Part shown: one piece after another, positions 7,150-29,700 of the stretch
Position numbering within the stretch: the first letter of the stretch is position 1
How the letters are laid out: each line of letters starts with the position of its first letter
Source of the DNA: Aristolochia californica
Lineage: Eukaryota > Streptophyta > Magnoliopsida > Piperales > Aristolochiaceae
Direction: 5' to 3'
Length of the DNA: 64,000 nucleotides
Assembly (NCBI GenBank): GCA_029961685.1
Contig: JARWKL010000008.1
Location: 15,533,981-15,597,980, forward strand
The notes under the pieces: model-generated
What the model saw: the letters and a program-made list of their open reading frames with translations, nothing else
What the model was told of the DNA's origin: nothing
Databases searched by the model: none
Made by a program: the position numbers and the translations under genes

Positions 7150-7166
7150 TTAAAACGTGTAAAAAA
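7150..7166 (+). repeat. Internal deletion scar in a monomer (~72 bp lost)
   Basis: The monomer 6,705-7,306 is only 602 bp long. It jumps from the taaaacatgtgtag box directly to ttttgtgttcatttg, across an A-run shared by both sides. The corresponding monomer of the second higher-order copy (around 19,110-19,205) retains the missing stretch, so the loss is private to this copy. Confidence 0.75.
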
Positions 7167-7980
7167 AATTTTGTGTTCATTTGTGGTGTGTCAATAAATT
7201 TTCTTTATCTACATTTTTTATTGCTTTAAATTCTTTCCATACATAAACCTTAAAATTTTCATTTTGTTGTGACCTATTTGCCCTTTATCTCTTTTTTTGT
7301 TTACGAGATGAAGGGAAAGTGAAAACTCAGGTTCTAATTTAAGAAAAAAGTATACATCTAAAATGGAAATTCACATTGCACAAATGTAGAGAGAGATAAT
7401 TCCAAAAAGTGTCTGTAATTTTTACGGATTGAAAACTCTTTTTAGTTTTTAAATATCAGGTACTGCAATTGTCAGGAAAAGGGAGAGGGGGGATTTCTAA
7501 CTGAGTGTTGACTCCCAATCAATTAGTCATTCCATAAAAAACTATAGCCCGTTACGCACGATAAATCACTTTACAATCATCTATGATAATTAGGTCAGCT
7601 TTTTGTAAATGAGCAAAAGAATGGCTTGTTTAACTCGGGTAAATATCCCAATGCGCGTTCACTTGAGAATTTAATGTTATAATCTTTAAAAGGTTTGGAT
7701 ACATAGGTCATTTGAATCTTTACCATGTGTCCAACATGCATATCCCTTTTTTAAAACATGAGTAGAAAAATCTCTTTCTTATAAAATTCCGAGAAATTAG
7801 GGTTGAACTAATGGAATTTCCCAAACTTGGATAAAAAAACTTTTGTGTTCATTTGTGGTGTCTGAATAAAATTTTATTACTTACATTTGTTTATTTCTTT
7901 ATATTGTTTCCATTCATAAACTCTAAAATTTTCATTTTGTTGTGATCTATTTGCCTTTTATCTCTTTTTTTTGTTTACGT

Positions 7981-8654
7981 GATGAAGGAAAAGTGAAAAC
8001 CCAAGTTTTGATTTACGAAGAATGTATACATCTAAAAAGGAAATCCACATTGCAAAAACGTAGAGAGAGATAATTCCAAAAAGTGTCTGTAATTTTTAAG
8101 GATTGTAAATTCTTTTTAGTTTTTATATATCGGGTTCTACAATTGTCGGGAAAAGGGGGAGGGAGGGGAATTTTAACTGAGGGTTGACTCCCAATCCATA
8201 TGTAATTCCTTAAAAAAATATAGCCTGTTACGCATGATAAATCACTTTACAATCATCTATGATCGATAGGTCAGCTTTTGGTTAATGGGCAAAATAATGG
8301 ATTGTTTGACTCGGGTAAATATCCCACTGCACGTTCACTTGAGAATTTAATGTTATTCTCTTTAAAAGGTTTGGATCCATAGGTCATTTGGATCTTTAAC
8401 ATGTTTCAAGCATGCCAATCCATTTTTTAAAACATGTGTAGAAAATCTCTTTCATATAAAATTCCAAGCTATTAGGGTTGAACCAGTGGAATTTCCCAAA
8501 CTTGGATAACAAAACTTTTGTGTTCATTTGTGGTGTGTGAAAAAATTTTCTCTACTGACATTTGTTTATTGCTTTAAATTCTTTCCATTCATAAACCCTA
8601 AAATTTTCATTTTGTTGTCAGCTATTTGCCTTTTATCTCTTTTTATGTGTAGGG
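7981..8654 (+). repeat. Representative satellite monomer (674 bp)
   Basis: One complete unit, taken from gatgaagg to the next gatgaagg. In order it holds: an A-rich stretch; a gagagagataattcc box; a conserved tatatatc stretch; a G-rich box (runs of G separated by 1-4 bases, about 8,148-8,170); the tgactcccaatccat box; the imperfect dyad around caatcatctatgatcg; the strongly conserved tttgactcgggtaaatatcc; a GGATCC site at 8,373-8,378; and a terminal pyrimidine-rich part. The next GGATCC is at 9,048, 675 bp on. The unit has no long open frame. Start and end are arbitrary because the array is circularly permutable. Confidence 0.9.
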
Positions 8655-11019: not shown

Positions 11020-11036
11020 TAAATATCCATTTTTTA
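11020..11036 (+). repeat. Internal deletion scar in a monomer (~110 bp lost)
   Basis: The monomer 10,687-11,249 is 563 bp. The text runs from gtaaatatcc straight into the ccattttttaaaac box, which normally lies more than 100 bp further on. The six bases atatcc occur at both original sites, so this looks like a microhomology or slippage deletion. Confidence 0.75.
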
Positions 11037-14000
11037 AAACATGTGTAGAAAAATCGCTTTCTTATAAAATTCTGAGCTATTCGGGTTGAACTAGTGTTGG
11101 ATAAAAAAAAAATTGTGTTCATTTCTGTTCTGTGAATAAATTTTCTTTACTTATATTTTTTTATTGCTTTAAATTCTTTCCATACATCAACTATAAAATT
11201 TTCATTATGTTGTGATCTATTTGCCTTTTATCTCTATTTTTGTTTACGAGATGAAGGGAAAGTGAAAACTCATGTTCTGATTTAAGAAAAAAGTATACGC
11301 CTAAAATGGAAATGCACAATGCACAAATGTAGAGAGAGATAATTCCAAAAAGTGTTTGTAATTTTTAGGGATTGTAAACACTTTTTAATTTTTATATATC
11401 AGGTTCTACAATCGTCAAGAAAAGGGAGAGTCGGGGGATTTTTAACTGAGTGTTGACTCCCAATTCATTAGTCATTCATTAAAAAACTATAGCCCGTTAC
11501 GCTTGATAAATCACTTTACAATCATCTATGATCGTTAGGTCAGCTTTTTGTAAATGTGCAAAAGAATGGCTTGTTGACTCTGGTAAATATCCCACCGCAC
11601 GTTCACTTGAGAATTTAATGTTATTCTCTTTAAAAGGTTTGCATACATAGGTCATTTGCATCTTTACCATGTGTCAAACATGCATATCCATTTTTTAAAA
11701 CATGTGTAGAAAATCTGTTTATTGTAAAATTTCGAGCTAGTAGGGTTGAACTAGTGGAATTTCCCAAACTTGGATAACAAAACTTTCGTGTTCATTTGTG
11801 TTGTGTGAATTAATTTGGTTTACTTATATTTTTTTAATGCTATAAATTCTATCCATACATAAACTCTAAAATTTTCATTTTGCTGTGATCTATTTGTGTT
11901 TAATCTCTTTTTTTGTTTACGAGATGAAGCGAAAGTGAAAAGTCAAGTTTCTATTTAAGAAAAAGGTATATATCTAAAATGGAAATGCACAATGGACAAA
12001 TGTAAAGAGAGATAATTCCAAAAAGTGTTTGTAATTTTTAGGGATTGTAAACTCTTTTTAGTTTTTATATATCAGGTTCTGCAATCATTAGGAAAAGGGA
12101 GAGGCGGGGGATTTTTAACTGAGTGTTGATTCCCAATCCATTAGTCATTCCATAAAAAAATATATCCTGTTATGCATGTTAAATCACTTTACAATCATCA
12201 ATGTTAGCTAAGCTTTTTATAAATGTGCAAAAGAATGGCTTGTTTGACTCGGGCAAATATCCCACCCCTTGTTCACTTGAGAATTTAATGTTATTCTCTT
12301 TAAAAGGTTTGGATCCATAGGTCATTTGCATGTTTAACAAGAGTCAAGCATGCATATCCATTTTTTAAAACATGTGTAGAAAAATCTCTTTCTTATAAAA
12401 TTTCGAGCTATTAGGATTGAACTAGTGGAATTTCCCAAACTTGGACAACAAAAATTTTGTGTTCATTTGTGTTGTGTGAATAATTTTTCTTTACTTAAAT
12501 TTGTTTATTTTTTTAAATTCTTTCCATGCATAAACCCTAAAAATTTCATTTTGTTGTGATCTATTTGCCTTTTATCGCTTTTTTTGTTTGCGAGATGAAG
12601 GTAAAGTGCAAACCCAAGGTTTGATTTAAGGAAAAAGTATAGATCTAAAATGGAAATGTTGAATTCACAAATGTAGAGAGAGATAATTCCCAAAAGTGTC
12701 TGTAATTTTTAGGAATTGTAAACTTTTTAGTTTTTATATATCAGGTTTTGTAGTCATCGGGAAAAGGGGGAGGCGGGGGATTTTTAACTAAGTCTTGACT
12801 CCCGATCCATAAGTCTTTCCATTCAAAAATATAGCCCGTTACGCATGATAAATCACTTTACAATCACCTATGATTGTTAGGTCAGCCTTTTGTTAATGGG
12901 CAAAATAATGGCTTGTTTGACTCGGGTAAATATCTCACCGCACGTTCACTTGAGAATTTAATTTTATTCTCTTTAAAAGGTTTGGATCTATAGGTCATTT
13001 GCTTCTTTAACTTGTTTCAAGCATGCATATCCATTTTTTAAAACAGGTGTAGAAAAATCTCTTTCTTATAAAATTCGGAGCTATTAGAGTCAAACTAGTG
13101 GAATTTCCCAAACTTGGATAACAAAACTTTTGTGTTCATTTGTTGTGTGTGAATAAATTTTCTTTACTTACATTTGTTTATTGCTTTAAATTATTTCCAT
13201 ACATAGACTTTAAAATTTTCATTTTGTTGTGATATATTTTCCTTTTATCTCTTTTTTTGTTTATGAGATGAAGGGCAAGTGAAAACTCATGTTTTCACTT
13301 AAGAAAAAGTATACATCTTAAATGGAAATGCACAATGAGAAATGTAGAGAGAGATAATTCATAAAAGTGTCTGTAATTTTTTAGGAATTTTAAACTCTTT
13401 TTAGTTTTATATATCAAGTTCTGCAATCATCGAGAAATGGGGGAGGCGGGGGATTTTTCTCGGAGTGTTGACTCCTAATCCATAAGTCATTCCTAACAAA
13501 AGTATAGCCCGTTACGCATGATAAATCACTTTACAATCATCTATGATCGTTAGGTCAGCTTTTTTTAAATGTGCAAAAGAATGTCTTGTTTGACTCGGGT
13601 AAATATCCCACCGCACGTTCACTTGAAAATTTAATGTTATTCTCTTGAAAGGTTTGGATCCATAGATCATACGCATCTTTACCATGTGTCAAGCATGCAT
13701 ATTCATTTTTTAAAACATGTGTAGAAAAATCTCTTTCTTATAAAATTTCGAGCTATTAGGATTGAACTAGTGGAATTTCCCAAACTTGGATAACAAAACT
13801 TTTGGGTTCATTTGTGGTGTGTGAATAACTTTTCATTACTTACATTTTTTTATTTCTTTAAATTTTTTCCATTCATAAACACTAAAATTTTCATTTTGTT
13901 GTGATCTATTTTCCTTTTATCTCTTTTATTTGTTTACGAGATGAAGGGAAAGTAAAAACTCAAATTTTTTATTTAAGAAAAAAGTATACCTCTAAAATGG

Positions 14001-14884
14001 AAATGCACATTGTACAAATGCAGAGAGGGATATTTCCAAAAAGTGTCTGTAATTTTTAGGGGTTGTAAACTCTTTTTAGTTTTTATATATCAGGTTTTGC
14101 AATCGTTAGGAAAAGGAGGAGGCGGGGGATTTTTAACTGAGTGTTGATTCCTAATCCATAAGTCTTTCCATCAAAAAATATAGCCCTTTACTCATACTAA
14201 ATCACTTGACATTCAATTAGGATCATTAGGTCATCTTTTTGTAAATGGGCAAAATAATGGCTTGTTTGACTTGGGTAAATATCCCACCGCACGTTCACTT
14301 GAGAATTTAATGTTATTCTCTTTAAAAGGTTTGGATCCATAGGTCATTTGCTTCATTAACTTGTTTCAAACATGCATATCCATTTTTTAAAATAGGTGTA
14401 GAAAAATCACTTTCTTATAAAATTCCGAGCTATTAGAGTCGAACTAGTGGAATTTCCAAAACTTGGATAACAAAACTTTTATGTTCATTTTTTGTGTGTG
14501 AATAAATTTTCTTTACTTACATTTGTTTATTACTTTAAATTATTTCCATACATAGACTTTAAAAATTTCATTTTCTTGTGATCTATTTTCCTTTTATCTC
14601 TTTTTTTGTTTATGAGATGAAGGGAAAGTGAAAACTCATGTTTTCACTTAAGAAAAAAGTATACATCTTAAATGGAAATGCACAATGACAAATGTAGAGA
14701 GAGATAATTCATAAAAGTGTCAATAATTTTGTAGAAATTGTACACTCTTTTTAGTTTTTATATATCAAGTTCTGCAATCGTCGGGAAATGGGGGAGGCGG
14801 GGGATTTTTCACTGAGTGTTGACTTCTAATCCATATGTCATTCATAAAAAAAGTATAGCCCATTACGCATGATAAATCACTTTA

Positions 14885-14900
14885 CAATCATCTATGATTG
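14885..14900 (+). repeat. Perfect dyad form of a box present in most monomers
   Basis: caatcat and atgattg are exact reverse complements separated by ct. In most monomers the right arm is atgatcg, making the dyad imperfect. The box lies next to ttaggtcagc, one of the best conserved parts of the monomer. Function is unknown; a protein-binding site is only a possibility. Confidence 0.5.
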
Positions 14901-17900
14901 TTAGGTCAGCTTTTTGTAAATGTGCAAAAGAATGGCTAGTTTGACTCAAGTAAATATCCCACCGCACGTTCACTTGAAAATTTAATGTTATACTCTTTAA
15001 AGGTTTGGATCCATAGGTCATTCACATCTTTACCATATGTCAAACATGCATATCCATTTTTTTAAAACATGTGTAAAAAAATTTCTTTCTTATAAATTCA
15101 AATCTATTAGGGTTGAACTAGTGGAATTTTCCAAACTTGGATAACAAAACTTTTGTGTTCATTTGTGGTGTGTGAATAAATTTTCATTACTTTCATTTGT
15201 TTATTTCTTTAAATTCATTCCATTCATAAACACTAAAATTTTCATTTTGTTGAGATCTATTTTCCTTTTATCTCTTTTATTTGTTTACGTGATGAAGGGA
15301 AAGTAAAAACTCACTTTTTGATTTAAGAAAAAAATGTACATTTAAAAAGGAAATGCACAATGCACAAATGCAGAGACAGATAATTCCAAAAAGTGTCTAT
15401 AATTTTTTAGGATTGTAAACAATTTTTAGTTTTTATATATCAGGTTCTGCAATCGTTGGGAAAAGAGGGAGGCGGAGGATTTTTAACTGAGTGTTGACTC
15501 CCACTCCATAAGTCATTCCTTACAAAAAAATAGCCAGTTACGCATGATGAATCACTTTACAATCATCTATGATCGATAGGTCAGCTTTTGGTAAATGGGC
15601 AAAATAATGGATTGTTTGACTTGGATAAATATCCCACCGCACATTCACTTGAGAGTTTAATGTTATTCACTTTAATAGGTTTGGTTCCATAAGTCATTTG
15701 GATCTTTAACATGTTTCAAGCATGCCTATCCATTTTTTAAAACATGTGTAGAAAAATCTCTTTCTTATAAAATTCCGAGCTATTAGGATGGTACGAGTGG
15801 AATTTCCAAAACTTGGATAACCAAACTTCTGTGTTCATTTGTGGTGTATGAAAAGATTTTTTTTTTTCTTACATTTGTTTATTACTTTATATTCTCTCCA
15901 TACATAAACCCTAAAATTTTCATTTTGTTGTGATCTTTTTGCCTTTTATCTCTTTATTTATTTAGGAGATGAAAGAAAAGTGAAAACTCAAGTGTTTTAT
16001 TTAAGAAAAAAGTATACACCTAAAATGGAAATGCACAATGTACAAATGTAGAGAGAGATATGTCCAAAAAGAGTTTATAATTTTTAGGGATTGCCAACTT
16101 TTTTTAGTTTTTAAATATCAGGTTCTACTGTCGTCGGGAAGAGGTGAAGGCGGGAGATTTTTAACTGAGTGTTGATAAGTCATTCTATACAAAAATATAG
16201 CCTGTTATGCATGATAAATCATTTTACAATCACCTATGATCGTTAGGTCAACTTTTTGTAAATGGGCAAAATAATGGCTTGTTTGACTCGGGTAAATATC
16301 CCACCTCACATTCAATTGAGAATTTAATGTTATTCTCTTTAAAAGGATTGGATTCGTAGCTCATTTGCATCTTTAACTTGTTTCAAGCATGCATATCCAT
16401 TTTTTAAAACATGTGTAGAAAAATCTCTTTCTTATAAAATTCCGAGCTAGTGGAATTTCCCAAACTTGGATTACAAAACTTTTGTGTTTATTTGTGGTGT
16501 GTGAATAAATTTTCTTTACTTACATTTTTTTATTGCTTTAAATTCTTTCCAAACATAAAGTCTAAAATTTTCATTTTTGTTGTGATCTATTTGCCTTTTA
16601 TCTCTTTTTTTTGTCTACGAGATGAAGGGAAAGTAAAAACTCAAGTTTTGATTTAAGAAAAAAGTATACATCTCAAATGGACAACCACAATGCACAAATG
16701 TAGAGAGAGATCATTCATAAAAATGTCAGTAACTTTGTAGGGATTTTAAACTCTTTTTAGTTTTTATATATCAAGTTCGACAATGGTTGGGAAAAGGGGG
16801 AGGTGGGGGATTTTTCACTGAGTGTTGACTCCCAATCCATAAGTCATTCCTTACAAAAATATAGCCCGTTAGGCAAGATAAATCACTTTACAATCATCTA
16901 TGATCGTTAAGTTAGTTTTTTGTAAATGGGCAAAATAATATCTTGTTTGGCTTGGGTAAATATCCCACCGCACGTTCACTTGAGAATCTAATGTTATTCT
17001 CTTTAAATGGTTTGGATCCTTTGGTCATTTGAATCTTTAACATGTTTCAAGCATGCTTATCCATTTTTTAAAACATGTGTACACAAATCTCTTTCTTATA
17101 AAATTCTGAGCTATTAGGGTTGAACCAGTGGAATTTCCCAAACTTGGATGACAAAAATTTAATGTTCACTTGTGGTGTGTGAATAAATTTTCTTTACTTA
17201 CATTTGTTTATTTCTTTAAATTATTTCCATACAAAAACTTTAAAATTTTCATTTTCTTGTGATCTATTTTCCTTTCCTCTTTTTTTTTTTTGTTTACGAG
17301 ATGAAGGGAAAGTGAAAACTCAAATTTTGATTTAAGAAAAAAGTATACATCTAAAGTGGAAATGCACAATGCACAAATGTAGAAAGAGATAATTCCAAAA
17401 TGTGTCTGTATTTTTAAGAGATTGTAAACTCTTTTTAGTTTTCATATATCAGATTCTGCAATCGTTGGGAAAAGGGGGATGCGGGGGATTTTTAACTGAG
17501 TGTTGACTCCCAATCCATAATTCATTATTCCTTACAAAAATATAGCCCGTTACGCATGATAAATCACTTTACAATCATCTATGATCATTAGGTCTGCTTT
17601 TTGTAAATGGACAAAATAATGGCTTGATTGACTCAGGTAAATATCCCACCGCACGTTCACTTGAGAATTTAATGTTATTCTCTTTAAAAGGTTTGGATCC
17701 ATAGGTCATTTGCATCTTAAACTTGTTTCAAGCATGCATATCCATTTTTTTAAACATGTGTAGAAAAATCTATTTCTCATAAAATTCCAAGCTATTAGAG
17801 TTGAACTAGTGGAATTTTCCCAACTTGGAAAACAAAACTTTTGTGTTCATTTGTGCTGCGAGAATTAATTTTATATACTTACATTTGTTTATTGCATTAA

Positions 17901-19427
17901 ATTCTATCCAAAAATAAACTCTAAAATTTTCATTTTGTTGTGATCTATTTGCCTTTTATCTCTTTTTTTGTTTTCGAGATGAAAGGAAAGTGAAAACTCA
18001 AGTTTCTATTTAATAAAAAAGTATACATCTAAAATGGAAATGCACAATGCAGAAATATAGAGAGAGATAATTCCAAAAAATGTCTGTAATTTTTAAGGAT
18101 TGTAAACTCTTTTTAGTTTTTAAATATCAGGTTCTGCAATCGTCGGAAAAAGGGGGAGGCTGGGGATTTTTAACTCAGTGTTGACTACCAATCCATAAGT
18201 AATTCCTTACAAAAAAATAACCCATTACGCATGATAACTCACTTTACAATCATCTATGATCTTTAGGTCAGCTTTTTCTAAATGGGCAAAATAATGGCTT
18301 CTTTGACTCGGGTAAATTTCCCATCGTACGTTCACTTGAGAATTTAATTTTATTCTCTTTCAAAAGTTTGGATCCATAGGTCATTTGCATCTTTAAAATG
18401 TTTCAAGCATGCATATCCATTTCTTAAAACATGTGTGGAAAAATCTCTTTCTTATAAAATTTCGTGCAATTTGAGTTGAACTAGTGGAATTTCCCAAACT
18501 TTGTTAACAAAACTTTTGTGTTCATTTGTGATGTGTGAATAAATTTTATTTACATACATTTGTTCATTGCTTTAAATTCTTTCCATACATAAACTCAAAA
18601 CAATTTCATTTTGTTGTGCTATATTTGCCTTTTAACTCTTTTTTTTGTTTGCGAGATGAAGGGAAAGTGAAAACTCAAGTTTTGATTTAAGAAAAAAGTA
18701 TACATCTAAAATGGAAATGCACATTGCACACATGTAATGTAGAGAGAAAAAATTCCAAAAAGTGTTTTTAATTTTAAGGGATTGTAAACTCTTTTTAGTT
18801 TTTATATATCAGGTTCTGTAATCTTTGGGGAAAAGGGGGAGGTGAAGGATTTTTAACTGAGTGTTGACTCCCAATCCAGGAGTCATTCATTACAAAAATA
18901 TAGCCCGTTACGCATGATAAATCATTTTACAATCATATATGATCGTTAGGTCAGCTTTAGGTAAATGGGTAAAATAATGGCTTGTTTGCCTCGGGTAAAT
19001 ATCCCATTGCACGTTGACTAGAGAATTTAACATTATTCTCTTTAAAAGGTTTGGATCCATATGTCATTTGCATCTTTAACATGTTTCAAGCATGCATATC
19101 CATTTTTTAAAACATATGTAGAAAAATCTCTTTCTTATAAAATTCCGAGCTATTAGGGTTGAACTATTGGAATTTCCCAAAAATTGGATAACAAAAATTT
19201 TGTGTTCATGTGTGGTGTGTCAATAAATTTTCTTTACCTACATTTGTTTATTCCTTTAAATTCTTTCCATACATAAACCCTAAAATTTTCATTTTGTTGT
19301 GATCTATTTGCCTTTTATCTCTTTTTTTGTTTACGAGATGAAGGGGAAGTGAAAACTCAAGTTCTGATTTAAGAAAAAAGTCTGCTAGAGACTCGTTTTG
19401 TTGTTCCCCCCGTAACCCCCCTAAAAA

Positions 19428-19440
19428 TGGTATCAGAGCT
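19428..19440 (+). promoter_or_regulatory. Primer-binding site, initiator tRNA-Met type
   Basis: TGGTATCAGAGCT is complementary to the 3' end of plant initiator tRNA-Met, the minus-strand primer of caulimovirids (and also of many Ty1/copia elements). It lies 48 bp inside the left boundary and is followed by the first ORF. The downstream bases (gagtagtaga) no longer match the tRNA. Confidence 0.85.
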
Positions 19441-19506
19441 GAGTAGTAGACTTGGTTTAATATGTGTCGAAGAAGTCAAAGCTTAACTTTGATTCTTTCT
19501 GTTTAG

Positions 19507-20148
19507 GAATACGTACTCCCAAAACAGTTACGACCCATACCGGTCACATCCCATGTAACATTTGTAAGGAACAAATGTACTAATGAACCAAAGACCCCAA
19601 CTAGTAGGTTAGAAGGAACTCAAGGTCCTTCTTACTACACTGTGTTGAAAACTGGACACACAAATGTTTGTCCAACAATAGGCTATCCACATGGATGGCA
19701 TGACAAGAATAATCCAATATTAAATAATATAATGGATTTAGTTGGTGATATGCATCACAGCTTCTTTATGAAAAGATGCTGGGAAAAATACACCCCAGAA
19801 AGCGTTGCTTTCCTATGCTTAGGAATAGAGAGTGACGTTAATGAACAGGTACAGAAACTCAAGAGAAGAATTAATGCCCATCTTGAGGTACTTAAAACAG
19901 GAAATACTGAAGAAACAATACGTTTTCTTACAGATCTACAAAGCTATGTGGATCAAGGAATAAATCCTTCTAGGATCTTAGAACCTATCCGAGAAGCAAA
20001 AATAAAAATGGTTAACAACAAACCATGTAAAAAGGAGTTACAAGAAGTAATTTGCAAAATATCTTCTGTAAAAACTCATCAAAGAACAAATAGAGATCGT
20101 CTTATACGAGACATCTGCGCCTTAACTCAAAATGAGGAATTGAGATAA
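19507..20148 (+). pseudogene. ORF1 of the pararetrovirus, unknown function, no early ATG
   Basis: The frame is open for 213 codons from just after a TAG at 19,504 to the TGA-type stop of its last codon at 20,148. There is no in-frame ATG until 19,732, which would give a 138-residue protein. Readable, protein-like sequence (for example TQGPSYYTV) lies upstream of that ATG, so translation may start at a non-ATG codon or the frame may be entered by splicing: a pyrimidine-rich tract ending in tttag sits exactly before the open frame. The product is hydrophilic and lysine-rich toward the C-terminus with helix-forming stretches; I see no known domain. Its place between primer-binding site and movement protein matches ORF VII of caulimoviruses or ORF1 of badna/tungroviruses, but I cannot assign homology. 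No internal stop is present. Confidence 0.55.
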
Positions 20149-20257
20149 CTAGTTATACAACACATCTCTCCTTTCATCACCTTGTATCAATTGGAACGAT
20201 TGATTGAAATCCTGTTCCAAAAATTAGAAGAAACCTCAACTCATCTAAAATTCCTAA

Positions 20258-21214
20258 ATGTCTGAACAAATAGGAATAGAATGTACTTCTCTCCAAAACA
20301 ATGTTCATATACATCATGAAACACAGGGAGAATACGATGAACATCCTAATCTAATGCAGGATGGACAAAAGTGGACAATAAGTATCCCTCGGATAACTGA
20401 AGTCTACAACAAAGATTGGACTGAATTCTAAAAGAAATCCTTCGTCTTCCAGAAGGAACTATCTGTAGAAATACAGGATACCAACTCAGGTACTTTCTGC
20501 TACAGATTATTAAGTGAATCTGACTTAGTGAAGCTAAAAAGATTCAAATATGTCCATTATGGACTAGTTCGTATAGGATTAGGCCCCTTAATACGAATCA
20601 ATCAGAATTTACCCTTCATAGCAGCTATAGTAGATAACTCTATGAAGAATAATTTTGAAAAAGCCCTACTTGGAGGAGTTAGAGCAAACTTAGGATTAGG
20701 CCCAGTATCCTTTACAACATGGCTCAATCTACAAATAGATTTAGAAGACAAGCACATCCAAGATACCTTGTCCCTAAAAATCTATACAGACAACTGGTCG
20801 AAAAATGGAATTCAACCAGGAAGAAGAATTATGCGCATACTTGTATGCATAGTAGCCCAAGGAATCAACACTGGAAAGGTTCCAGTTAAAGATTCAAAGA
20901 AACTCACAGAATTAGCCAAAAACATTGGTTATTCTAAAAACTTGACTATAGAAGAACTTGACCCTAGAGAGTTAACATGGCCAATAGAATGAGTAGTCCA
21001 ACCTTTGGCACCCAGACACTTTCCCCTCTCTCGAAAAACCATAAAAGAGATAGAAGGAAAACTAGTGATGACAAACACTAGATCTAGCTTTTCCATCGAA
21101 TAGGACAGACCCTCTACCTCAACAAGTAGAGCCTCAAACAGTTCCCGTTTTGAAGGAATAGGAAATCCAAGGCCCAATGCTTATGTTCCTCTTCACATAG
21201 ATGATGTCACATAA
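20258..21214 (+). pseudogene. Movement protein (30K superfamily), broken
   Basis: The frame starts at ATG 20,258 and would run 318 codons, about the size of caulimovirid movement proteins, which form or modify plasmodesmata for cell-to-cell spread. The core around residues 105-200 has the 30K pattern: a hydrophobic strand, the aspartate in IVDNSM (about residue 126), ALLGG, then GLGPVSFTTW and alternating strand-like segments. It is broken by TAA at 20,429 (codon 58), TGA at 20,990 (codon 245) and TAG at 21,101 (codon 282). The final TAA at 21,212 overlaps the start of the next frame. The longest surviving open piece is 20,432-20,989. Assignment rests on motif pattern and gene order rather than a database match. 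Confidence 0.72.
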
Positions 21215-21620
21215 CCCATACAAAGCCTTAGGTCCACCTATAGGAAATAGTGACATCGTCATCAATTCCAATCAAACCTGAGAGTCTTTTGGTAAGACCC
21301 TTAATAGGTTAGAAAAAATTGTTGAAAACCTTCAACAGAAAATAGATTTCCTCTACGATGAACATAAACATAGAGAACTAATAAAGTGACAAAACATCCT
21401 AGAAAATATTCTAGAAAAGATTGACCATGGAAATAGTCCTGTTTTCTTCAAAGAGTTAACAGAACTTAAACTAAGTTTAGATAATCTAAAAAAAGATAAA
21501 ATGCAAGAACTTTTAACAGAAGTCTTAGCATTAAAAGAACATCTAGGTTCAAAAGAACGCCTAGGTTCTCCCGGTCCATCGAGGTATAAAACACCTTTTA
21601 CACCTTGGACACCAGAATGA
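21201..21620 (+). pseudogene. Coiled-coil protein in virion-associated-protein position, broken
   Basis: The frame begins with two adjacent ATGs (21,201 and 21,204) overlapping the end of the movement protein frame and stops at TGA 21,618, about 139 codons. Residues about 30-60 and 65-115 are rich in Leu/Ile at heptad spacing (for example LNRLEKIVENLQQKIDFL), so a coiled coil is likely. The C-terminus is proline- and aromatic-rich (RYKTPFTPWTP). Coiled coil plus a short Pro-rich or basic tail, placed between movement protein and capsid, is the plan of caulimovirus ORF III and badnavirus P2 proteins, which bind the capsid; that homology is inferred. TGA stops at 21,279 and 21,387 break the frame. 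The final TGA overlaps the ATG of the next ORF as ATGA. Confidence 0.6.
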
Positions 21621-21826
21621 TCTATAAAAAGAAATTTTTAGATCGTATAAAATTAAAAAGAGAAATCGTTGACCTCGCTTTACTCCAAAGAAATACTCTT
21701 CAGCCAGAAGGTAATACAATCCCAACAATGGTATGGTATTACTATTTTTGGGAAAGATATTCTGATCGCATCTACAACCTTAGATGCAAGATGAAGAAAA
21801 GAAAGATAAACCTTTTAGCTTTGTAA
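21617..21826 (+). CDS. Small ORF A (69 aa), intact, resembles the next ORF
   Basis: The ATG overlaps the preceding stop (ATGA), an arrangement typical of caulimovirid reinitiation. The product is basic, begins MIYKKKFLDRIKLKREI and ends in a Lys/Arg-rich stretch finishing LLAL. It has a Tyr/Trp-rich middle (WYYYFWERY). No known domain is recognised. It shares length, start, the FLD/LLD..L.R opening, TL.P, a central W followed by R, and the L-A-L end with the neighbouring small ORF B, so the two look like a tandem duplication. The frame has no stop although larger genes around it are broken; short length makes that unremarkable. Expression in the present integrated state is doubtful. Confidence 0.5.
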   Translation: MIYKKKFLDRIKLKREIVDLALLQRNTLQPEGNTIPTMVWYYYFWERYSDRIYNLRCKMKKRKINLLAL

Positions 21827-21827
21827 A

Positions 21828-22043
21828 ATGATCTGTAGAGCAAGACTACTAGATCAACTTCGTCTGGTACGGTCAATGCAAGCCCAAAATTGGCAAGCCA
21901 AAGAAACTCTCACACCAGTAAATGAAACCGATATAGCTTATCAAGCATATCTGAATGAATGGTGGAGATTAACCCGTAGAGAAGTTCTACTACGGTATCT
22001 GATCAAAAAGGTTCAACGGAAGCTTCAAGAATTAGCTCTATGA
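21828..22043 (+). CDS. Small ORF B (71 aa), intact, paralogue of ORF A
   Basis: It starts one base after the TAA of ORF A and ends 17 bp before the capsid frame, so it belongs to the same polycistronic transcript. It begins MICRARLLDQLRLVRSM and ends KLQELAL; the middle has AYLNEWWRLTRRE. It is basic and predicted mainly helical by eye. Its similarity to ORF A covers the whole length at low identity, strongest at the two ends. Caulimoviruses and soymoviruses have one or two small genes in this interval, so these may be a duplicated accessory gene; no function can be assigned from sequence. Confidence 0.5.
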   Translation: MICRARLLDQLRLVRSMQAQNWQAKETLTPVNETDIAYQAYLNEWWRLTRREVLLRYLIKKVQRKLQELAL

Positions 22044-22060
22044 CATAGTTTTTCTATTTA

Positions 22061-23795
22061 ATGGATATGGAAGCCCCATTACCATTAGGCCTTCTTGACA
22101 TCACCGGATGGCTTAAAAACCTAGTGTACCTTGCAACACCTTGCATAACACCTAGAAGAAAAAAGGATCCAGCACCACTTGCTTTTAGGATCGCTTCAAA
22201 AGCATCATCCTCCACCGATGATGAAGTTTACGCAAAATATAATACCTTCGGTCACCAACCGATTTATTATGTTCAAGAGGAAAAACCTTCCTCTAGTAAA
22301 CAACAAGAGCAACACGACAGTGAACCAGAAGCCATGGAACCTGATGAAGTTGCAGAAGAAAATACCAGGAAAATAGACTACTTTGCTAAAGACAAAAAGG
22401 CAGATGATCTTGGTAAAAGATTTCGAATGCTTCATGGTAGCGACCATTTTGAAGCAGAAACTTCAAGGGTACGAGACACCCACATGGAAGATAGCTTTCA
22501 AGATAACTTCCGAAATCGTACTGCGGTTCACCCACAAGAACGAGAAAGTTTCTCCCACTCCAAAATATCCCTGGGAGGACAAAGGTATGTGACAAAATAC
22601 ACAAATGTTGATCCTTCAAATGCTACTAAGGAACACCAAACCATAGATAGCATAAACCCTTTTGGATTTTACCTCAACTTGGATTGCCCCAAGGATGGAG
22701 AAAATGTCCTTAAAGATTGGGAAAGAAGCATGAGCAATGCTGCAAATATGCATGAATCTTGGAACCAAGAATCAGCATTTAATTTCTTTACCCATGCTTT
22801 ACAGGGTAATGTAGCTCATTGGTGGGACAACCTTCCCAAAGACCAAAAATGAGCTAATACCTCAATATTGATAGCCAATATCTTGAAAGGATTAGTGGCT
22901 AAGATATCAAAGGAATTTCTAGGAATACATCCAACCCTAGAAGCCTATAATGAGAGTACTAAACAAAGAACACGTTTAGAAACTCTTTAGAAATTAAACA
23001 AGTTACAAATCTGTAACATTTGTTTTTATGAGAAGTATTACTGTGAGTTTGCAAGTTACTTCTATAAACTGCAAAAAGAAAACCAGAAACCTTATCTATC
23101 TATCTTTTATTCAAAATTTCCAGAACCTTTTGCACATGTAGCTGAAAAAGACTACATTATAAAATTTTGACAAAACAATCCAGAACATGGTACTTTAACC
23201 ATGGATAATTTCCTAAACATTGATACTTTAGGAAGAAGATATCGATTTGTACAAGACATGTTGGCAAATCTTTGTGAAGCCCAAAAACTACAAAAGAAAA
23301 GTAGTAAGGCAAATAAACAAACATTATGTTGTTCAAACCAGAACAAAAATGTAGGAGCTTATGGTTGTAAAACCACCTCCCATAAGCAATGAAAATATCC
23401 TAAGAAATATCAATAGAAAAAATTTCGGATACAAAAAAAGTTCTACAACCAGGTATACTTCTAAAAAGAAATACTTTAAGAAAAGAACAAATTCTGGCCC
23501 TCCCACATCCAGTCAAGGGTCAAATGCATACTGCCCCAAGGGGAAAACCCTAAGCAAATGCAAATGCTGGATATGCCAGAAAGAAGGACATTTTGCAAAA
23601 GATTGTCCAAATGATAAACAACAATGGCGGTACAGTACTTACATGTTACTAGCCGAAGAAAAAGGATTGGAAATCATCCATTATGATGACATCCAGTCAA
23701 GAGATGAGGTCTATGAACTTCATCTAGAAACTGAGTCTTCCTCCTCAAAAAACTCAGAAAATATGAGTGACTCTTCAGGCACAACCTTTGCCTAA
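22061..23795 (+). pseudogene. Capsid protein with CCHC zinc knuckle, broken
   Basis: The frame starts at ATG 22,061 and ends at TAA 23,793, about 577 codon equivalents. The N-terminal third is acidic and Ser/Glu-rich. The central part holds a conserved-looking core with FTHALQGNVAHWWDNLP near codon 255. The C-terminal part has a Lys/Arg cluster, the knuckle CWICQKEGHFAKDC, then a Ser/Glu-rich acidic tail. An acidic N-terminus, basic region, CCHC and acidic C-terminus is the caulimovirid capsid plan; the protein packages the viral genome. Breaks are TGA at 22,850, TAG at 22,988 and TGA at 23,168, followed by a frameshift somewhere in 23,355-23,389. The first frame ends at TGA 23,390; the second carries the zinc knuckle. 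A retrotransposon gag also has CCHC, but the neighbours favour a virus. Confidence 0.78.
23565..23606 (+). other. CCHC zinc knuckle coding segment
   Basis: It encodes C-X2-C-X4-H-X4-C (CWICQKEGHFAKDC) with all four zinc ligands preserved. It lies in the frame downstream of the capsid frameshift, between a Lys/Arg-rich segment and an acidic tail. Confidence 0.9.
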
Positions 23796-23973
23796 TATTC
23801 GGTTATGCTTTGGCCTTCCCGATATACCAATGGCAGCCAGTGTGGTGATTTATATCCCACTATTGTCATAAACTTTCTCTGCTACTGCATCCTGCATTTA
23901 TAGAGAACTTTATAATTAACCTGATACTCTTACCACTCGAAGAATTTTCTTTCTTGTGTTATAGACAGGTAAA
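23796..23973 (+). promoter_or_regulatory. Short intergenic region where the polymerase gene should be; acceptor-like site
   Basis: Only 178 bp separate the capsid stop from the next ATG, whereas caulimovirids normally have about 2 kb of protease-reverse transcriptase-RNase H here. No remnant of that gene is visible. The last 35 bp are pyrimidine-rich and end in ttatagacag, then gtaaaatgg at the ATG, which resembles a plant 3' splice site. An AT-rich tttatagag near 23,899 could alternatively be a TATA element for a separate transcript, as in the CaMV 19S unit. Confidence 0.5.
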
Positions 23974-25086
23974 ATGGAACCTCTCAGCAGCACCCTGATG
24001 GACCTAGTAGCAACAATTGCCACACTCATGGTATTGCTCTCAACCCTACAGTCCCTATTCGACAGTCTTTTAGTTCTTTCAAAATGAGGAGACATACATG
24101 AGAATTGTGCCCGTTACGGGTTAAGTGGAGAAATCTTACAACTCAAGGTTAACGAATTAACCGAAGAGTTAAAAGAACTCACTCAATGGCATAAAAGGCC
24201 AAGCTCCTCTGGGACTTCTACCGGGTATCCATCGTGAGAAAAGGAAACCACAACGTCAGCTAATCAACAGACAGATGACTTTAGTGTTTTGATCAACACA
24301 GGTCGACCCGGGATTTCTATCGATCATGCTAGGCATGAGAAGGAAATCACAACCCAATCTTCTCTAAAGATAGGGGAATCAGGGATTTCTACCTGCCAGT
24401 TTAGAGCTGCAAAGGAAACCTTAATGATTTCTTTGAAATCGGAATCAGGGACTTCTACCTCTCAGTCTCGAGCTGAAAAGGAAGTCTTAACAGATCCATC
24501 TCTGATGGAAACAGACTTGTCTAGTAATGAGAAATCATTCAAGACAAAATTGGTTACCCCGTCTGGGTTTACAAGGTTTAAAAGCCTAAATAAACTAGAT
24601 AAAACTAGTTTTAATGAGTTTGAGTTTTTAAAGAAATTTAAACCTTTAAAACTTTCAGACATTATGTCTGAGGAACCCTCGCTACGCCCTCAAAAGGTGG
24701 ACAACATTCGTTCAAAGATCGAATCCGATCATACTGTCCAAGGTGGACAAGGGATGAACACTCCCTTCTTCACCACTGAGCCCAACAACAGTTGGAATCA
24801 AGTGAAGCTGAGTCATGAAATAGACTCAAAATATGCATCCATGCTTTATGCATATGGATTCATAAAACATATCGTACTTCACTCCACCGACTTATCAGTG
24901 TTGGAGAAAATGCCAAAGGAAATTATGGAGGCTTGTAAAAGTTTCATCTCCATAACAAAGAGTAAAGGAATTCGACTTCATTTCGTTTCCTGTATTGCTG
25001 AAATTGTTACTGACACAAAGATGTTTCTGAGCATTTCTGTCGTGACACTTGAAGGCATCAAAGAAGGTGACGCAAATATGGAATAA
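23974..25086 (+). pseudogene. ORF in the position of caulimovirus gene VI, broken
   Basis: The frame runs from ATG 23,974 to TAA 25,084, 370 codons. Near the N-terminus is a hydrophobic Leu-rich segment (LMVLLSTLQSLFDSLLVL), then a heptad-like stretch (LQLKVNELTEELKELTQW) likely to form a coiled coil. Next come four Ser/Thr-rich internal repeats, and a C-terminal half with a possible folded domain (DSKYASMLYAYGFIKHIV and following). Gene VI in caulimoviruses encodes the inclusion-body and translation transactivator protein; here only position, size and downstream promoter support that role. I do not recognise its signature motifs, and a tungrovirus P4-like protein is an alternative. TGA stops at 24,085 and 24,235 break the frame; 24,238-25,083 remains open. 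Confidence 0.5.
24208..24510 (+). repeat. Four-copy internal repeat in the gene-VI-position ORF
   Basis: Copies start near 24,208, 24,305, 24,379 and 24,445. Each opens with a version of tcagggacttctacc and continues to a gaaaaggaaacc-like box. In protein terms the unit is about 22-32 residues with G-[IT]-S-[IT], then R or E, A or H, and KE. The first copy contains the TGA at 24,235. The last two copies are the most alike, which suggests stepwise tandem growth. Confidence 0.7.
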
Positions 25087-25206
25087 TGTCCCAGACATGT
25101 TCCAAAAGCCAAGCCTTGCCCAGAAACAGTCTGGCCAACTAGGCGTATCCGCGGGCTCAAGAACCTAATACAACTCATACAACAGTTGCTTCAGAAAAAG
25201 AAAAGT

Positions 25207-25277
25207 TTTGTCTACAAGACCTCCGTCCCACTGACGATTGTCTCAAAAAGATTTGTCTACAAGACCTCCGTCCCACT
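25207..25277 (+). repeat. 26-bp direct repeat upstream of the promoter
   Basis: The 26 bases beginning tttgtctacaagacc and ending gtcccact occur at 25,207-25,232 and identically at 25,252-25,277, 45 bp apart. They lie after the last viral stop codon and upstream of the 35S-like TATA box, so they may be enhancer repeats or a replication slip. Confidence 0.85.
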
Positions 25278-25439
25278 TCCGTCTAGACCAGTCTCGAAGT
25301 TACGCTGAAGAAACTCCTCAGAGGAAATATCCCCTTCAGCAAAACAACAAAGGAAAGCTTCTGCCAGATGGCCCAGAAGACTTTTCCGAAGGAGCACACC
25401 TGTCAATTGTGCACAGAAAGGCAGTTGTCCGAATGAGCA

Positions 25440-25743
25440 GTCAACAGCTACGTCAGCAGCCGTTAAGGCCCACGACAAAATCAAAGTCAGCAAAGGCGGC
25501 TACAAATGTCATCAATGATGGCTACACCAAGTCAACAATGATGGCTAAAGAAGATTCCTGCACGTCATCATCATGATGTTACAAGCAGAAAAGACATTTC
25601 TACCCCTGCTTTCGGTGCCGAAAGGTAATAATGCAAGGGCAAAAATGACATGCCGAAAAGACAAAAGTTACCCTTTGTCTTTAAACACACACCTTTCAAT
25701 AAAGGGTAAAAGCGGAAGACATGAAAGATCTTCAGCTATAAAT
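25440..25743 (+). promoter_or_regulatory. Putative 35S-like pregenomic promoter
   Basis: A TATAAAT box lies at 25,737-25,743. Upstream are two ACGTCA motifs (25,450 and 25,562), the TGACG-type core bound by TGA bZIP factors in the CaMV as-1 element. The position, downstream of the last ORF and before the leader, is where caulimovirids start the pregenomic RNA. Two further TATA-like boxes, TATAAATA at 26,093 and TATAAAA at 26,533, make the exact start uncertain. An AATAAA lies at 25,698-25,703, upstream of the TATA box. Activity within satellite heterochromatin is unlikely but not testable here. Confidence 0.5.
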
Positions 25744-26060
25744 TCAACACTCCTCCAGAGGTTGGGACATTCAAAAATTGGAGAGACTCGAAACATGAAG
25801 AAGCATTAGCATTCGAAGAAGAAGGTGATTTCCGGCGATCTTTCTCCAACAAGTTCCTCAAGCACGGTATGTGCTTAAACAGCCGTAATGGCGGAGTAGA
25901 AAAGAGGGAACCAACCGGTGCCACGGTCGGTAACTTCGGGAGTTATGTAGCTAAGTAGTTTTTTCTTTTCCCTTTTTATGGGTATGTATTTAGTTATTTT
26001 TATCTTATCTTGAACAATGTTTTAATATTTTCCGCATGTTTGTAATATTGTGATTCGTAC

Positions 26061-26158
26061 AGTAGTTGTTATTACTGTTCATGTTCCGCATATATAAATA
26101 TGATCTCCACAGTTGTTGTTATCACTGTTCATGTTCCGCATATATATATGATCTCCAC
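26061..26158 (+). repeat. Tandem ~49-bp repeat in the leader
   Basis: Two near-identical copies (26,061-26,110 and 26,111-26,158) each contain actgttcatgttccgc followed by an AT stretch and gatctccac. A degenerate series of ttactgttc motifs continues to about 26,250. The AT stretch of the first copy is TATA-like. Confidence 0.85.
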
Positions 26159-26312
26159 AGTATTTGTTTTTACTGTTCCAAAGTTATTGTTCAAAAGTAT
26201 TGTTCATTTTTACTATTGCATGGTTACTATTCATGTTTACTGTTCACTCGTCAAAAAGAAATAGTATCGAAATAGTGCCAAATAGGACAGAAGCTAGAGA
26301 CTTGGAATTATT

Positions 26313-26380
26313 CGGCTATGCTCCGAGGTAGAAAATGAAACGGAGCTGTGCTCTACCCTGCTGAAGTAGCCATGGAGCCG
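26313..26380 (+). other. Stem-rich leader element, possible pseudoknot
   Basis: GCTCCG (26,320-26,325) pairs with CGGAGC (26,341-26,346), and GGTAGA (26,327-26,332) pairs with TCTACC (26,352-26,357). The two stems interleave, the topology of an H-type pseudoknot. GGCTA (26,314) with TAGCC (26,367), or CGGCT (26,313) with AGCCG (26,376), could close an outer stem. Pairings were found by eye; no energy calculation was made. Confidence 0.45.
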
Positions 26381-26763
26381 CAACGGTTAATAGGAACGGC
26401 TTGGGGCCCTCTGGAGACCGTGAGGACTGCATTGATGGAATTGACCACGTGGTGGTAATCCGGCAGGAATAGGGTCAAACCCCGAAGAAGTTCCAAGTAG
26501 CAGTAGAAGTCATGTTGGGCCTATTAGATAGCTATAAAATAGATACAAATGAGTACAGAGCAGTGACATGTGGTAGGAAGCAGGAGTGATATGATAGTGA
26601 AATGATAGGACTGTCGAAATGTAACTGTAGGAATAGTATTGTGTGAGTCATCGATGTTTTCCGCTGCTCGTAGCCAGTGTGTAAGTAGAAATCCCTAGGA
26701 TTCTAGTTCCGCTGCCATCATCCCTAGGTTCTCTTCCACTGTGTGCGCAAGTTTATCAGAGAC

Positions 26764-29700
26764 TTTTAAAACATATGTAGAAACGTCTCTTTCTTATAAA
26801 ATTTTGAGCTATTAGGGTTGAACTAGTGGAATTTAAAAAAACTTTTGTGTTCATTTGTGCTGTGTGAATAAATTTTCTTTACTTACATTTTTCTATTGTT
26901 TTAATTATTTCCATACAAAATCCTTAAATTTTTCATTTTGTTGTGATCTATTTGCCATTTATCTCTTTTTTTGTTTACGAGATGATGGGAAAGTCAAAAC
27001 ACAAGTTTTGATTTAAGAAAAAAGTATATATCTAAAATGGAAATGCACACTGCACAAATGTAGAGAGAGAGAATTCCAAAAAGTGTCTGTAACTTTTACG
27101 GATTGTAAACACTTTTTAGTTTTAATATATCAGGTTCTGCAATCGTTGGGAAAAGGAGGAGGCGGGGGATTTTTAATGGAGCGTTGGCTCCCAATATATA
27201 AGTCATTCCTTAAAAAAATATAACCCATTACGCATTAAAAATCACTTTACAATCATCTATGATCGATAGGTGAGCTTTTTGTAAAAGGGCAAAATAATGG
27301 CTTGTTTGACTCGAGTAAATATCCCAACGCTCGTTCACTTGAGAATTTAATGTTATTCTCTTTTAAAGGTTTGGATCCATATGTCATTTGCATCTTTAAC
27401 ATGCTTCAATCATGCCTATCCATTCTTTAAAACACGTGTAGAAACGTCTCTTTCTCATAAAATTCCGAGCTTTTAGGGTTGAACTAGTGGAATATCCAAA
27501 ACAAGGATAACAAAACTTTTTTGTTCATTTGTGATGTGTGAATAAATTTTATTTACTTACATATGTTTATTGCTTTCAATTATTTCCACACATAAACCCT
27601 AAAATTTTCATTTTTTTCTGATCTATTTGCGTTTTATCTCTTTTTTTTGTTTACGAGATGAACGGAAAGTGAAGACTCAAGTTTTGATTTAAGAAAAAAG
27701 TATACATCTAAAATGGAAATGCACAATGCACAAATGTAGAAAGAGATAATTCAAAAAAAATGTATGTAATTTTTAGGGATTGTAAACTCTTTTTAGTTTT
27801 CATATATCTGGTTCTGCAATAGCCGGGAAAATGGGGATGCAGGGGATTTTTAACTTAGTGTTGACTCCCAATCTATAAGTCATTCCTTAAAAAAATATAG
27901 CCCGTTACACATGATGATTACTTTACAATCATCTATGATCGTTAGGTCAGCTTTTTGTAAATGTGCAAAATAATGGCTTATTTGACTCGGGTAAATATCC
28001 CACCGCACGTTCATTTGAGAATTTAATGTTATTCCATTTAAAAGGTTTGGATCCATAGGTGATTTGTGTCTTTAACATGTTTCAAGCATGCATATCCATT
28101 TTGTAAAACATGTCTAGAAAAGTTTCTTTCTATAAAATTCCCAGCTATTAGGGTAGAACTAGTGGAATTTCAAAAAATTGGATAACAAAACTTTTGTGTT
28201 CAATTGTGGTGTATGAATAAATTTTGTTTACTTATATTTTTTTATTGCTTTAAATTATTTCCATACAAAAACCCTAAAAGGTTCATTTTCTTCTGATCTG
28301 TTTGCCTTTTATCTCTTTTTTTATTGACGAGAGGGAAAGTGTAAACTCAAGTTTTGATTTAAGAAAAAACTATACATCTAAAATGGAAATGCACAATGCA
28401 CAAATGTACAGAGAGATAATTCTAAAAATTGTCTGAAATTTTTAGGGATTGTAAACTCTTTTTAGCTTTTATATATCTGGTTCTGCCATCGTCGAGAAAT
28501 GGGGGATGCGGGTGATTTTTAATGGAGTGTTGACTCCCAATAAAAAAGTCATTCCTTACAAAAAAATACCCATTTCGCATGTAAACTCACTTTACAATCA
28601 TCTATGATCGATAGGTCAGCTTTTTGTAAATTGGCAAAATAATGGCTTCTTTGACTCGGGTAAATATCCAAACTCACGTTCACTTGAGAATTTAATGTTA
28701 TTCTCTTTAAAAGGTTTGGATCCATAGGTCATTTGAATCTTTAACATGTTTCAAGCATGCCTATCCATTTTTTAAAACATGTGTAGAAAAATCTCTTCCT
28801 TATAAAATTCAAAGCTATTAGGATTGAACTAGTGGAATTTCCATAACTTGGATAACAAAACTTTTGTGTTCATTTGTGGTGTGTGACTAAATTTTATTTA
28901 CTTACATTTTTTCATTGCTTTAAATTCTTTCCATATATAAACCCTAAAATTTTCATTTTGTTGTGGTCTATTTGCCTTTTATCTCTTTTTTTGTTTATGA
29001 GATGAAGGCAAAGTGAAAACTCAAGTTTTGATTTAAGAAATAAGTAAACATCTAAAATAGAAAAGCACAATGCAAAAATGTAGAGAGAGATAATTCAAAA
29101 AAGTGTTAGTAATTTTTAGCGACTGTAAACTCTTTTTAGTTTTTATATATCAGGTTCTACAGTCTTCGGGAATAGGGGGAGGTGAGGTTTTTTTAACTGA
29201 TTGTTGACTCCCAAAACATAAGTCTTTCCATAAAAAATTATAGCCCATTACGAATGATAAATCACTTTACAATCATCTATGATCATTAGGTCAACTTTTT
29301 GTAAATGTGCAAAATAATGGCTTGTTTGACTCGGGTAAATATCCCACCGCACGTTCACTTGAGAATTTAATGTTATTCTCTTTAAAAGGTTTGGATCCAT
29401 AGGTCATTTTCATCTTTAACTTGTTCCAAGCATGGATATCCATTTTTTAAAACATGTGTAGAAAAATCTCTTTCTTATAAAATTTCGAGCTATTAGGGTT
29501 GAACTAGTGGAATTTCCCATACTTGGATAACAAAACTTTTGTGTTCATTTGTGGCATGTGAATAAATTTTTTTTGCTTACATTTTTTTATTTCTTTAAAT
29601 TCTTTCCATACATAAACCCTAAAATTTTTATTTTGTTGTGATTTGCCTTTTATCTCTTTTTATGCTTACGAGATGAAAGGCAAGTGAAAACTCAAGTTTT

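What the first reader, a model, noticed from the sequence alone, without database searches (positions are those of the whole stretch)
23796..23973. Pararetrovirus with a full structural gene set but no polymerase gene
Movement protein, coiled-coil protein, capsid and a gene-VI-position ORF are all present in caulimovirus order, yet only 178 bp lie where protease-RT-RNase H should be, and the element otherwise looks complete from primer-binding site to leader. Three explanations: a deletion in this copy; integration of a reverse-transcribed spliced RNA; or one component of a divided genome whose polymerase is carried elsewhere. Divided genomes have been proposed for some endogenous florendoviruses, so the third is not far-fetched.
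Basis: partly seen in the sequence, partly recalled or inferred. Interest (0 to 1): 0.75.

Follow-up and report, generated by a model that had tools for sequence, protein, structure and literature searches.

The report
Polymerase-less endogenous plant pararetrovirus lineage
A plant genome holds many copies of an ancient DNA virus that lost its copying enzyme just once, apparently spread by borrowing the enzyme of its complete sister virus, and left both kinds embedded side by side in the chromosomes.

Summary
Window 19389-26766 is a near unit-length caulimovirid element in a ~674-bp satellite array; only 178 bp lie between the capsid stop and the gene-VI start. The deletion is not private. All 40 scored copies run through the junction, and 104 places on 16 contigs carry at least 2 of 4 junction markers close together. 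Sister copies carry protease-RT-RNase H at exactly this position: 25 of 30 polymerase loci read capsid, about 1930 bp, gene VI. In capsid trees the RT-less copies are one clade (100/98), nested among full-length copies. Nine of nine representatives share the same breakpoints and a 132-bp filler unlike any viral sequence tested, so simple splicing fails. Five full-length leaders match the window's at 87-93% and interleave with RT-less ones (AU p 0.016-0.023). Both forms lie together far above a shifted control (18 of 70 against 0.9), as full-length copies do among themselves. Best reading: a derived non-autonomous pararetrovirus copied in trans by its full-length sister, like eRTBVL2 of rice, not an obligate divided genome. 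It is a new member of a known kind. Trans-replication is inferred.

The parts
19389..26766 (+). RT-less endogenous caulimovirid element, near unit length, inserted in a ~674-bp satellite array
   Evidence: Satellite on both sides; 9 of the 20 fetched copies align in one piece from 19424 (one from 19382) to 26766, besides the window's own place and its twin
19429..19440 (+). Primer-binding-site-like TGGTATCAGAGC
   Evidence: Sequence; 11 of 14 RT-less starts printed keep TGGTATCAGAG, three have base changes; tRNA-Met reading recalled
19507..20148 (+). Leading ORF, function unknown, helical prediction of low confidence
20258..20992 (+). Movement protein frame, one in-frame stop in this copy
   Evidence: PF01107 E 8.9e-10 on 20432-20989; frame
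21390..21620 (+).
   Evidence: no Pfam match over cut-off
22061..23795 (+). Capsid gene with CCHC zinc knuckle, broken by stops and a frame change in this copy; stop at 23793-23795
   Evidence: PF00098 4.7e-6; PF22909 0.005, below cut-off
23783..23914 (+). 132-bp filler at the site of the missing polymerase gene; boundaries good to a few bases
   Evidence: Comparison with full-length copies; no detected similarity to pol or the rest of the element
23915..23973 (+). Remnant of about the last 14 codons of the polymerase frame and the short gap before gene VI, shared with full-length copies
   Evidence: 80-92% match in 25 of 30 sister loci; in L009 the match starts at 23964
23974..25086 (+). Gene-VI-position frame, two in-frame stops in this copy
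   Evidence: no family match
25600..26766 (+). Leader / intergenic region shared with polymerase-bearing copies

Best explanation
The element belongs to a derived, non-autonomous lineage of an undescribed caulimovirid. Once, in a full-length ancestor of about 9 kb (size inferred), the polymerase gene was lost: everything from the capsid end to about the last 14 codons of the gene went, and 132 bases of unknown origin took its place. Capsid, gene VI, leader and primer-binding site were kept. The shortened genome then multiplied and entered the germline several times, most likely because the polymerase of the full-length sister virus, present in the same cells, reverse-transcribed its RNA from the shared leader and primer site. 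Shown here: single origin, exact site, many copies on 16 contigs, a polymerase-bearing sister in the same genome with a matching leader, interleaved leaders, and side-by-side insertions. Inferred: that the sister's polymerase acted in trans, and that both circulated as viruses at the same time.
For: All 40 scored junction copies are contiguous at 90-100% identity; 104 places on 16 contigs have at least 2 of 4 junction markers within 200 bp on one strand. Of 30 polymerase loci, 30 have the capsid 3' end directly upstream and 25 have the gene-VI start directly downstream after ~1930 bp. The inserted ORF of L010 is 655 aa with PR, RT and RNase H. Capsid tree: 18 RT-less rows one clade, 28 full-length rows outside, 100/98. 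Rooted on a diverged relative, one clade of full-length rows is rejected (AU p 0.041). Same breakpoints in 9 of 9 representatives. Leader: polymerase-bearing copies (assigned by distance) hold ranks 4, 11 and 13 among the 40 leaders nearest the window's. RT-less leaders are not one clade (AU p 0.016; 0.023 without the two full-length leaders picked by similarity). Co-location within 15 kb of a listed polymerase: 18 of 70 filler sites and 14 of 100 listed 3'-boundary sites, against 0.90 and 1.39 in shifted controls, 0 of 1000 each; for the 40 junction places 5 against 0.71, 3 of 2000.
Against: No direct evidence of replication. Polymerase places cluster with each other about as often (39 of 150 against 1.8), so co-location is a habit of the family, not a mark of partnership, and several of the pairs are copies of one event. 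Many RT-less copies are host duplications: nine of the 20 fetched share one junction with inverted satellite, and C24 carries a triplicate. The leader test uses only five full-length leaders with weak backbone support. Of the six leader pieces fetched from full-length copies, L062 matched nothing and L059 matched only ~300 bp at 83.5%. Purifying selection on the capsid during spread is clear in full-length copies (shared 76N:79S against private 233N:86S, p 4e-7) but not in RT-less ones (29:15 against 178:52, p 0.125). Some stops are shared between RT-less insertion classes, though full-length copies share stops as well. The primer-binding site of full-length copies was never read (searches did not complete).
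Confidence: 0.8

Rival explanations
1. One integrated, polymerase-deleted copy was multiplied by the host through satellite-array growth and segmental duplication; the deletion never existed as a replicating virus.
For: Nine of the 20 fetched copies share the C1 junction with inverted satellite; the window and a C329 copy are twins, and so are L041/L042 and L044/L052; C24 carries a triplicate.
Against: At least four sets of flanks or viral breakpoints among the 20 fetched: A (satellite at 19389), F (left flank without satellite match), G (right end to inverted satellite), H (cut at 22882). L043/L056 are head to tail through a leader-to-primer-site junction, as circular DNA gives. Leaders interleave with full-length ones. 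Copies lie on 16 contigs.
Confidence: 0.12
2. One component of an obligately divided genome whose partner carries only the polymerase side.
For: A polymerase-bearing element with a matching leader exists; precedent in florendoviruses (PMC4241990, passages) and ePVCVL/ePVCVL2 (PMC5491270 section 8).
Against: All 30 fetched polymerase loci carry the capsid end upstream, and 25 of 30 carry the gene-VI start downstream: the partner is not complementary. These are the 30 best of 150 scored and 508 candidates. The protease is lost too, unlike florendovirus component B.
Confidence: 0.07
3. Integration of a reverse-transcribed spliced viral RNA.
For: Caulimovirids splice their RNA (recalled); the loss starts almost at the capsid stop.
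Against: The 132 bases between the breakpoints match neither pol nor the element clearly better than shuffles do (498 of 1000 as good against the last 200 bases of pol, 40 of 300 against whole pol). The removed full-length segment has no GT...AG ends at the breakpoints.
Confidence: 0.01
4. A private deletion in this copy.
For: Sister copies carry the gene at this exact place.
Against: All 40 scored copies and 104 marker-confirmed places share the junction.
Confidence: 0

Closest known systems
eRTBVL2 with eRTBVL (non-autonomous and autonomous rice tungro-like endogenous pararetroviruses; PMC5491270, parts read)
   Same: Lacks RT/RNase H yet multicopy; an autonomous sister in the same genome; shared intergenic region that recombines between the two; a segment from elsewhere at the site of the loss
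   Different: There the segment is a coding SFKTE domain from another virus and the protease is kept; here it is 132 bp of unknown origin and the protease is lost too. Different virus lineage, and more places (104, host duplicates included, against 13 segments)
Florendovirus component B (PMC4241990, passages)
   Same: MP and capsid without RT; similar leader in the polymerase-bearing partner; compound insertions
   Different: There the partner lacks part or all of the capsid domain and the two are complementary, and the protease is kept; here the partner carries the capsid, and the whole polymerase ORF but about its last 14 codons is gone
Genus Caulimovirus and Rudbeckia flower distortion virus
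   Same: Separate ORFs in the order MP, small proteins, capsid, PR-RT-RH, gene VI (order of the genus recalled); best named matches to the full-length polymerase (45-46% identity)
   Different: The polymerase falls outside the Caulimovirus plus Rudbeckia virus clade (97/98) and outside that plus soymoviruses (99/96) in a tree of 30 chosen rows

Membership tests
Caulimoviridae | 30K-type movement protein | tested here: met
   PF01107 E 8.9e-10
Caulimoviridae | Capsid with CCHC zinc knuckle | tested here: met
   PF00098 E 4.7e-6; coat domain PF22909 only 0.005, below cut-off
Caulimoviridae | Protease-RT-RNase H, no integrase | tested here: not met
   Absent from the window; met by the full-length sister L010 (PF02160, PF00078, PF17917, no integrase family among its matches)
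Caulimoviridae | tRNA-Met primer-binding site | tested here: met
   TGGTATCAGAGC at 19429; TGGTATCAGAG in 11 of 14 RT-less starts printed; tRNA match recalled; full-length copies not read
Non-autonomous pararetrovirus (sense of Chen 2017) | RT/RH absent in many copies of one structure | tested here: met
   not all copies are independent
Non-autonomous pararetrovirus (sense of Chen 2017) | Intergenic region shared and recombining with an autonomous partner | tested here: met
   Identity 87-93% for five full-length leaders and AU p 0.016-0.023; L059 matched only ~300 bp and L062 not at all; no separate recombination test was run
Bipartite florendovirus, component B | Partner component lacks capsid and supplies RT | tested here: not met
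   30 of 30 polymerase loci keep the capsid end
Bipartite florendovirus, component B | Florendovirus RT clade | not tested
   No row named as a florendovirus was put in the tree
Genus Caulimovirus | Polymerase inside the genus clade | tested here: not met

The most novel reading that the evidence does not exclude
The polymerase-less form was a stable satellite-like virus that lived beside its helper through many infection cycles, with its own diversification and regular exchange of leaders, and it threw off a still smaller class: repeating ~3.0-kb units of filler end, gene VI and leader (seen only as spacing of pattern hits). Together these would be a nested set of dependants on one pararetrovirus.
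Probability: 0.15. Interest if true: 0.8.

Novelty: new member of a known kind. Interest (0 to 1): 0.55.

Why it matters
The papers seen report non-autonomous and divided pararetroviruses only as fossils, in grasses, grapevine and sugar beet. Here helper and dependant sit in one genome in the hundreds (375 polymerase-end and 114 RT-less 3'-boundary pattern hits), in a genome with separate genes, so the polymerase gene could be lost cleanly without breaking its neighbours. The set is large enough to ask whether dependants kept their own genes under selection and how often they swapped leaders with the helper.

Tried and rejected
Protein search with the movement-protein piece found nothing at E 0.001. 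Structure models of the gene-VI piece and the leading ORF were too poor for a fold search. The filler showed no clear similarity to pol or to the rest of the element; a weak tblastx hit (E 0.22 and 0.77) overlaps the shared 3' boundary. No host donor of the filler was found and none was searched for directly, since a DNA search scores only the best 40 copies. The first leader trees counted L051 and L055 as RT-less; one search showed that L051's leader belongs to an inverted polymerase-bearing copy and that L055's lies inverted and unassigned. The tree was redone with L051 relabelled and L055 dropped; p was 0.0156 before and 0.0161 after. In one search, with only two full-length leaders, RT-less leaders did form one side of a branch (99/98). 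The synonymous/non-synonymous counts are underpowered for RT-less copies; RT-less against full-length shared changes gave p 0.06, and near-fixed differences were 2N:2S. In one search the RT-less subset was picked by hand and is not relied on. Why 30 listed 5'-boundary places and 23 filler-end places carry no other listed marker stays open (three of the four lists are cut at 100). The full-length count (375) may include RT-less variants without the 3' indels.

Full report
What is there. It is a ~674-bp satellite array interrupted at 19389-26766 by a caulimovirid element. Pfam supports a movement protein (20432-20989, E 8.9e-10) and a capsid zinc knuckle (4.7e-6), with a weak capsid-domain match (0.005). 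Between the capsid stop (23795) and the next ATG (23974) lie 178 bp. No polymerase domain was found in the ten open pieces scanned, and tblastn of a sister polymerase against the whole window gave only a 23-residue stretch (E 0.013) in the satellite, while the control gave the full 655. The copy is decayed, with stops in several frames.

The junction is shared. A 305-bp query across it gave 748 first-look candidates, of which 40 were scored. All 40 match through the junction at 90-100% identity, 34 over all 305 bases and six over 300-303. The 748 may include polymerase-bearing copies, because the query's second part is shared with them. Four short markers were counted in the whole genome, each with 0 hits for the reversed control: capsid end plus filler start 203, filler interior 70, filler end 123, 3' boundary 114. 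Merged when on one strand and less than 200 bp apart, 104 of 203 merged places hold at least two markers, on 16 contigs; three of the four lists were cut at 100 rows, and order within a place was not enforced. The 5'-to-3' spacings listed run from 136 to 174, mostly 153-157. Nine of nine representatives aligned share the same breakpoints, with single-base changes and one 2-base indel inside.

The polymerase sits exactly here in sister copies. A genome search with Peptidase_A3 gave 508 candidates, of which 150 were scored and all 150 were over the cut-off. Of the 30 loci fetched (the best 30), 30 have the capsid 3' end directly upstream (29 at 91.9-94.8% identity, L025 at 82%). Twenty-five continue after ~1930 bp into the gene-VI start at 80-92%. 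The other five (L013, L025, L026, L027, L031) do not; four of those show a second capsid copy instead. In L010 the inserted ORF has 655 codons with protease, RT (6.1e-38) and RNase H. A pattern at the end of the gene has 375 hits, control 0.

How it was lost. Relative to full-length copies the RT-less form lacks everything from the capsid end to about the last 14 codons of the gene and has 132 bp instead (23783-23914). The filler is no better matched to the last 200 bases of pol than shuffles are (498 of 1000 as good), nor clearly to the whole of pol (40 of 300; reverse strand 183 of 300) or to the rest of the element (33 of 100 and 93 of 100). The removed stretch lacks GT...AG ends, so simple splicing does not explain it.

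One origin, nested in the full-length virus. In a 46-row capsid tree the 18 RT-less rows are one clade (100/98) and the 28 full-length rows lie outside (four of 50 loci lacked the piece). Rooted with the diverged L025, holding the full-length rows as one clade is rejected (AU p 0.041). Over 246 columns, the gene-VI start likewise needs one change (86/97). Mean capsid identity is 94.8% between RT-less insertion classes, 94.0% between RT-less and full-length, and 95.0% among full-length clusters.

Not all copies are independent. Of the 20 fetched RT-less copies, nine on C1 end in the same junction with inverted satellite, four belong to the window's insertion class, two (L044/L052) are twins and two (L043/L056) stand head to tail; L047, L051 and L055 stand alone. 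At least four sets of flanks or viral ends are distinct. The head-to-tail pair is joined through leader and primer site, as expected of circular viral DNA.

Shared leader. A 567-bp leader query gave 909 candidates, of which 40 were scored. Eleven of the 40 belong to listed RT-less copies and three lie within 62 bp of the distance expected from a listed polymerase; these are ranks 4, 11 and 13. A fourth lies 1.9 kb too far, and 25 could not be assigned. With 15 RT-less and 5 full-length leaders, RT-less leaders are not one clade (AU p 0.0161). Two of the full-length leaders had been chosen by similarity; without them p is 0.0233. Backbone support is weak, the full-length label rests on distance to the polymerase, and an earlier tree with only two full-length leaders did not split the RT-less rows. 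Of six full-length leader pieces fetched, L062 matched nothing and L059 matched for only ~300 bp at 83.5%.

Side-by-side insertions. Within 15 kb of a listed polymerase lie 18 of 70 filler sites (shifted control mean 0.90, 0 of 1000 as many), 14 of 100 listed 3'-boundary sites (1.39, 0 of 1000) and 5 of the 40 junction places (0.71, 3 of 2000). The three sets overlap, and several pairs are duplicates of one event (three on C24, three on C1). Polymerase places cluster with each other to a similar degree (39 of 150 with another 3-15 kb away, against 1.8). Co-location therefore shows that both forms were captured in the same way, not that they were partners.

Selection. In full-length copies, capsid changes shared between insertion clusters are poorer in amino-acid changes than private ones (76:79 against 233:86, p 4e-7). 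In RT-less copies the difference is not significant (29:15 against 178:52, p 0.125), nor is it in the movement protein (7:7 against 84:31, p 0.117), the leading ORF (p 1), the capsid's front part (p 1) or gene VI (p 0.37). Some stops are shared between RT-less classes (two in the capsid, one in the movement protein, four in the leading ORF, three in gene VI), but nine are shared among full-length capsids too, so recurrent mutation is likely. Whether the dependant used its own proteins is open.

Placement. The full-length polymerase is 45-46% identical to Rudbeckia flower distortion, dahlia mosaic and figwort mosaic viruses; unnamed entries reach 61% over part of its length. In a tree of 30 rows (29 chosen from the 120 listed of 758 hits) it falls outside the Caulimovirus plus Rudbeckia virus clade and outside that plus soymoviruses: an undescribed lineage by this sample.

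Known kind. Geering 2014 (PMC4241990, passages) described florendovirus components lacking RT with partners lacking part or all of the capsid domain. Chen 2017 (PMC5491270, outline and abstract, part 1 of the results, section 8 and passages) described RT-less eRTBVL2 sharing and exchanging its intergenic region with autonomous eRTBVL, which is the closest parallel. A 2023 review (PMC10377300, passages) lists further bipartite cases. The listings of searches showed no title or abstract opening on an RT-less form in a caulimovirus-type multi-gene lineage; only open-licence papers are held, and the listed papers other than these three were not opened.

Noticed in passing
G000:C478:23200589-23206452, C478:17281859-17284866, C478:22016227-22019231, C478:13036262-13039279, C35:17272155-17275156: The filler end recurs at ~2.9-3.0-kb spacing. 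In the four C478 runs no other junction marker is listed (on C35 one of the two places has the 5' marker), and three runs start 3.97 kb after a polymerase start, as if filler end, gene VI and leader formed a repeating unit.
   Followed up: partly
window 1-19388 and 26767-64000: Satellite array with a ~674-bp period (84 long matches to one query kb), turning to the opposite orientation near 61.5-62 kb beside a 38-base G run.
   Followed up: no
L025 (G000:C2:7769166): A diverged relative (81-82% identity in front genes and capsid end) with the middle genes missing but a polymerase start kept: perhaps a second virus species in the same genome.
   Followed up: partly
L013, L026, L027, L031: A second capsid end follows a shortened polymerase stretch, i.e. 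rearranged tandem copies.
   Followed up: no
G000:C24:9444058, 9514429, 9590834: A block with an RT-less junction and a polymerase in opposite orientation occurs three times, 70 and 76 kb apart.
   Followed up: no
G000:C329:18482033, C500:15250472, C500:21070650: RT-less junction markers lie 9.4-9.5 kb after a polymerase start on the same strand, near the ~9.2 kb I expect for a head-to-tail full-length/RT-less tandem, and the filler end is doubled there.
   Followed up: partly
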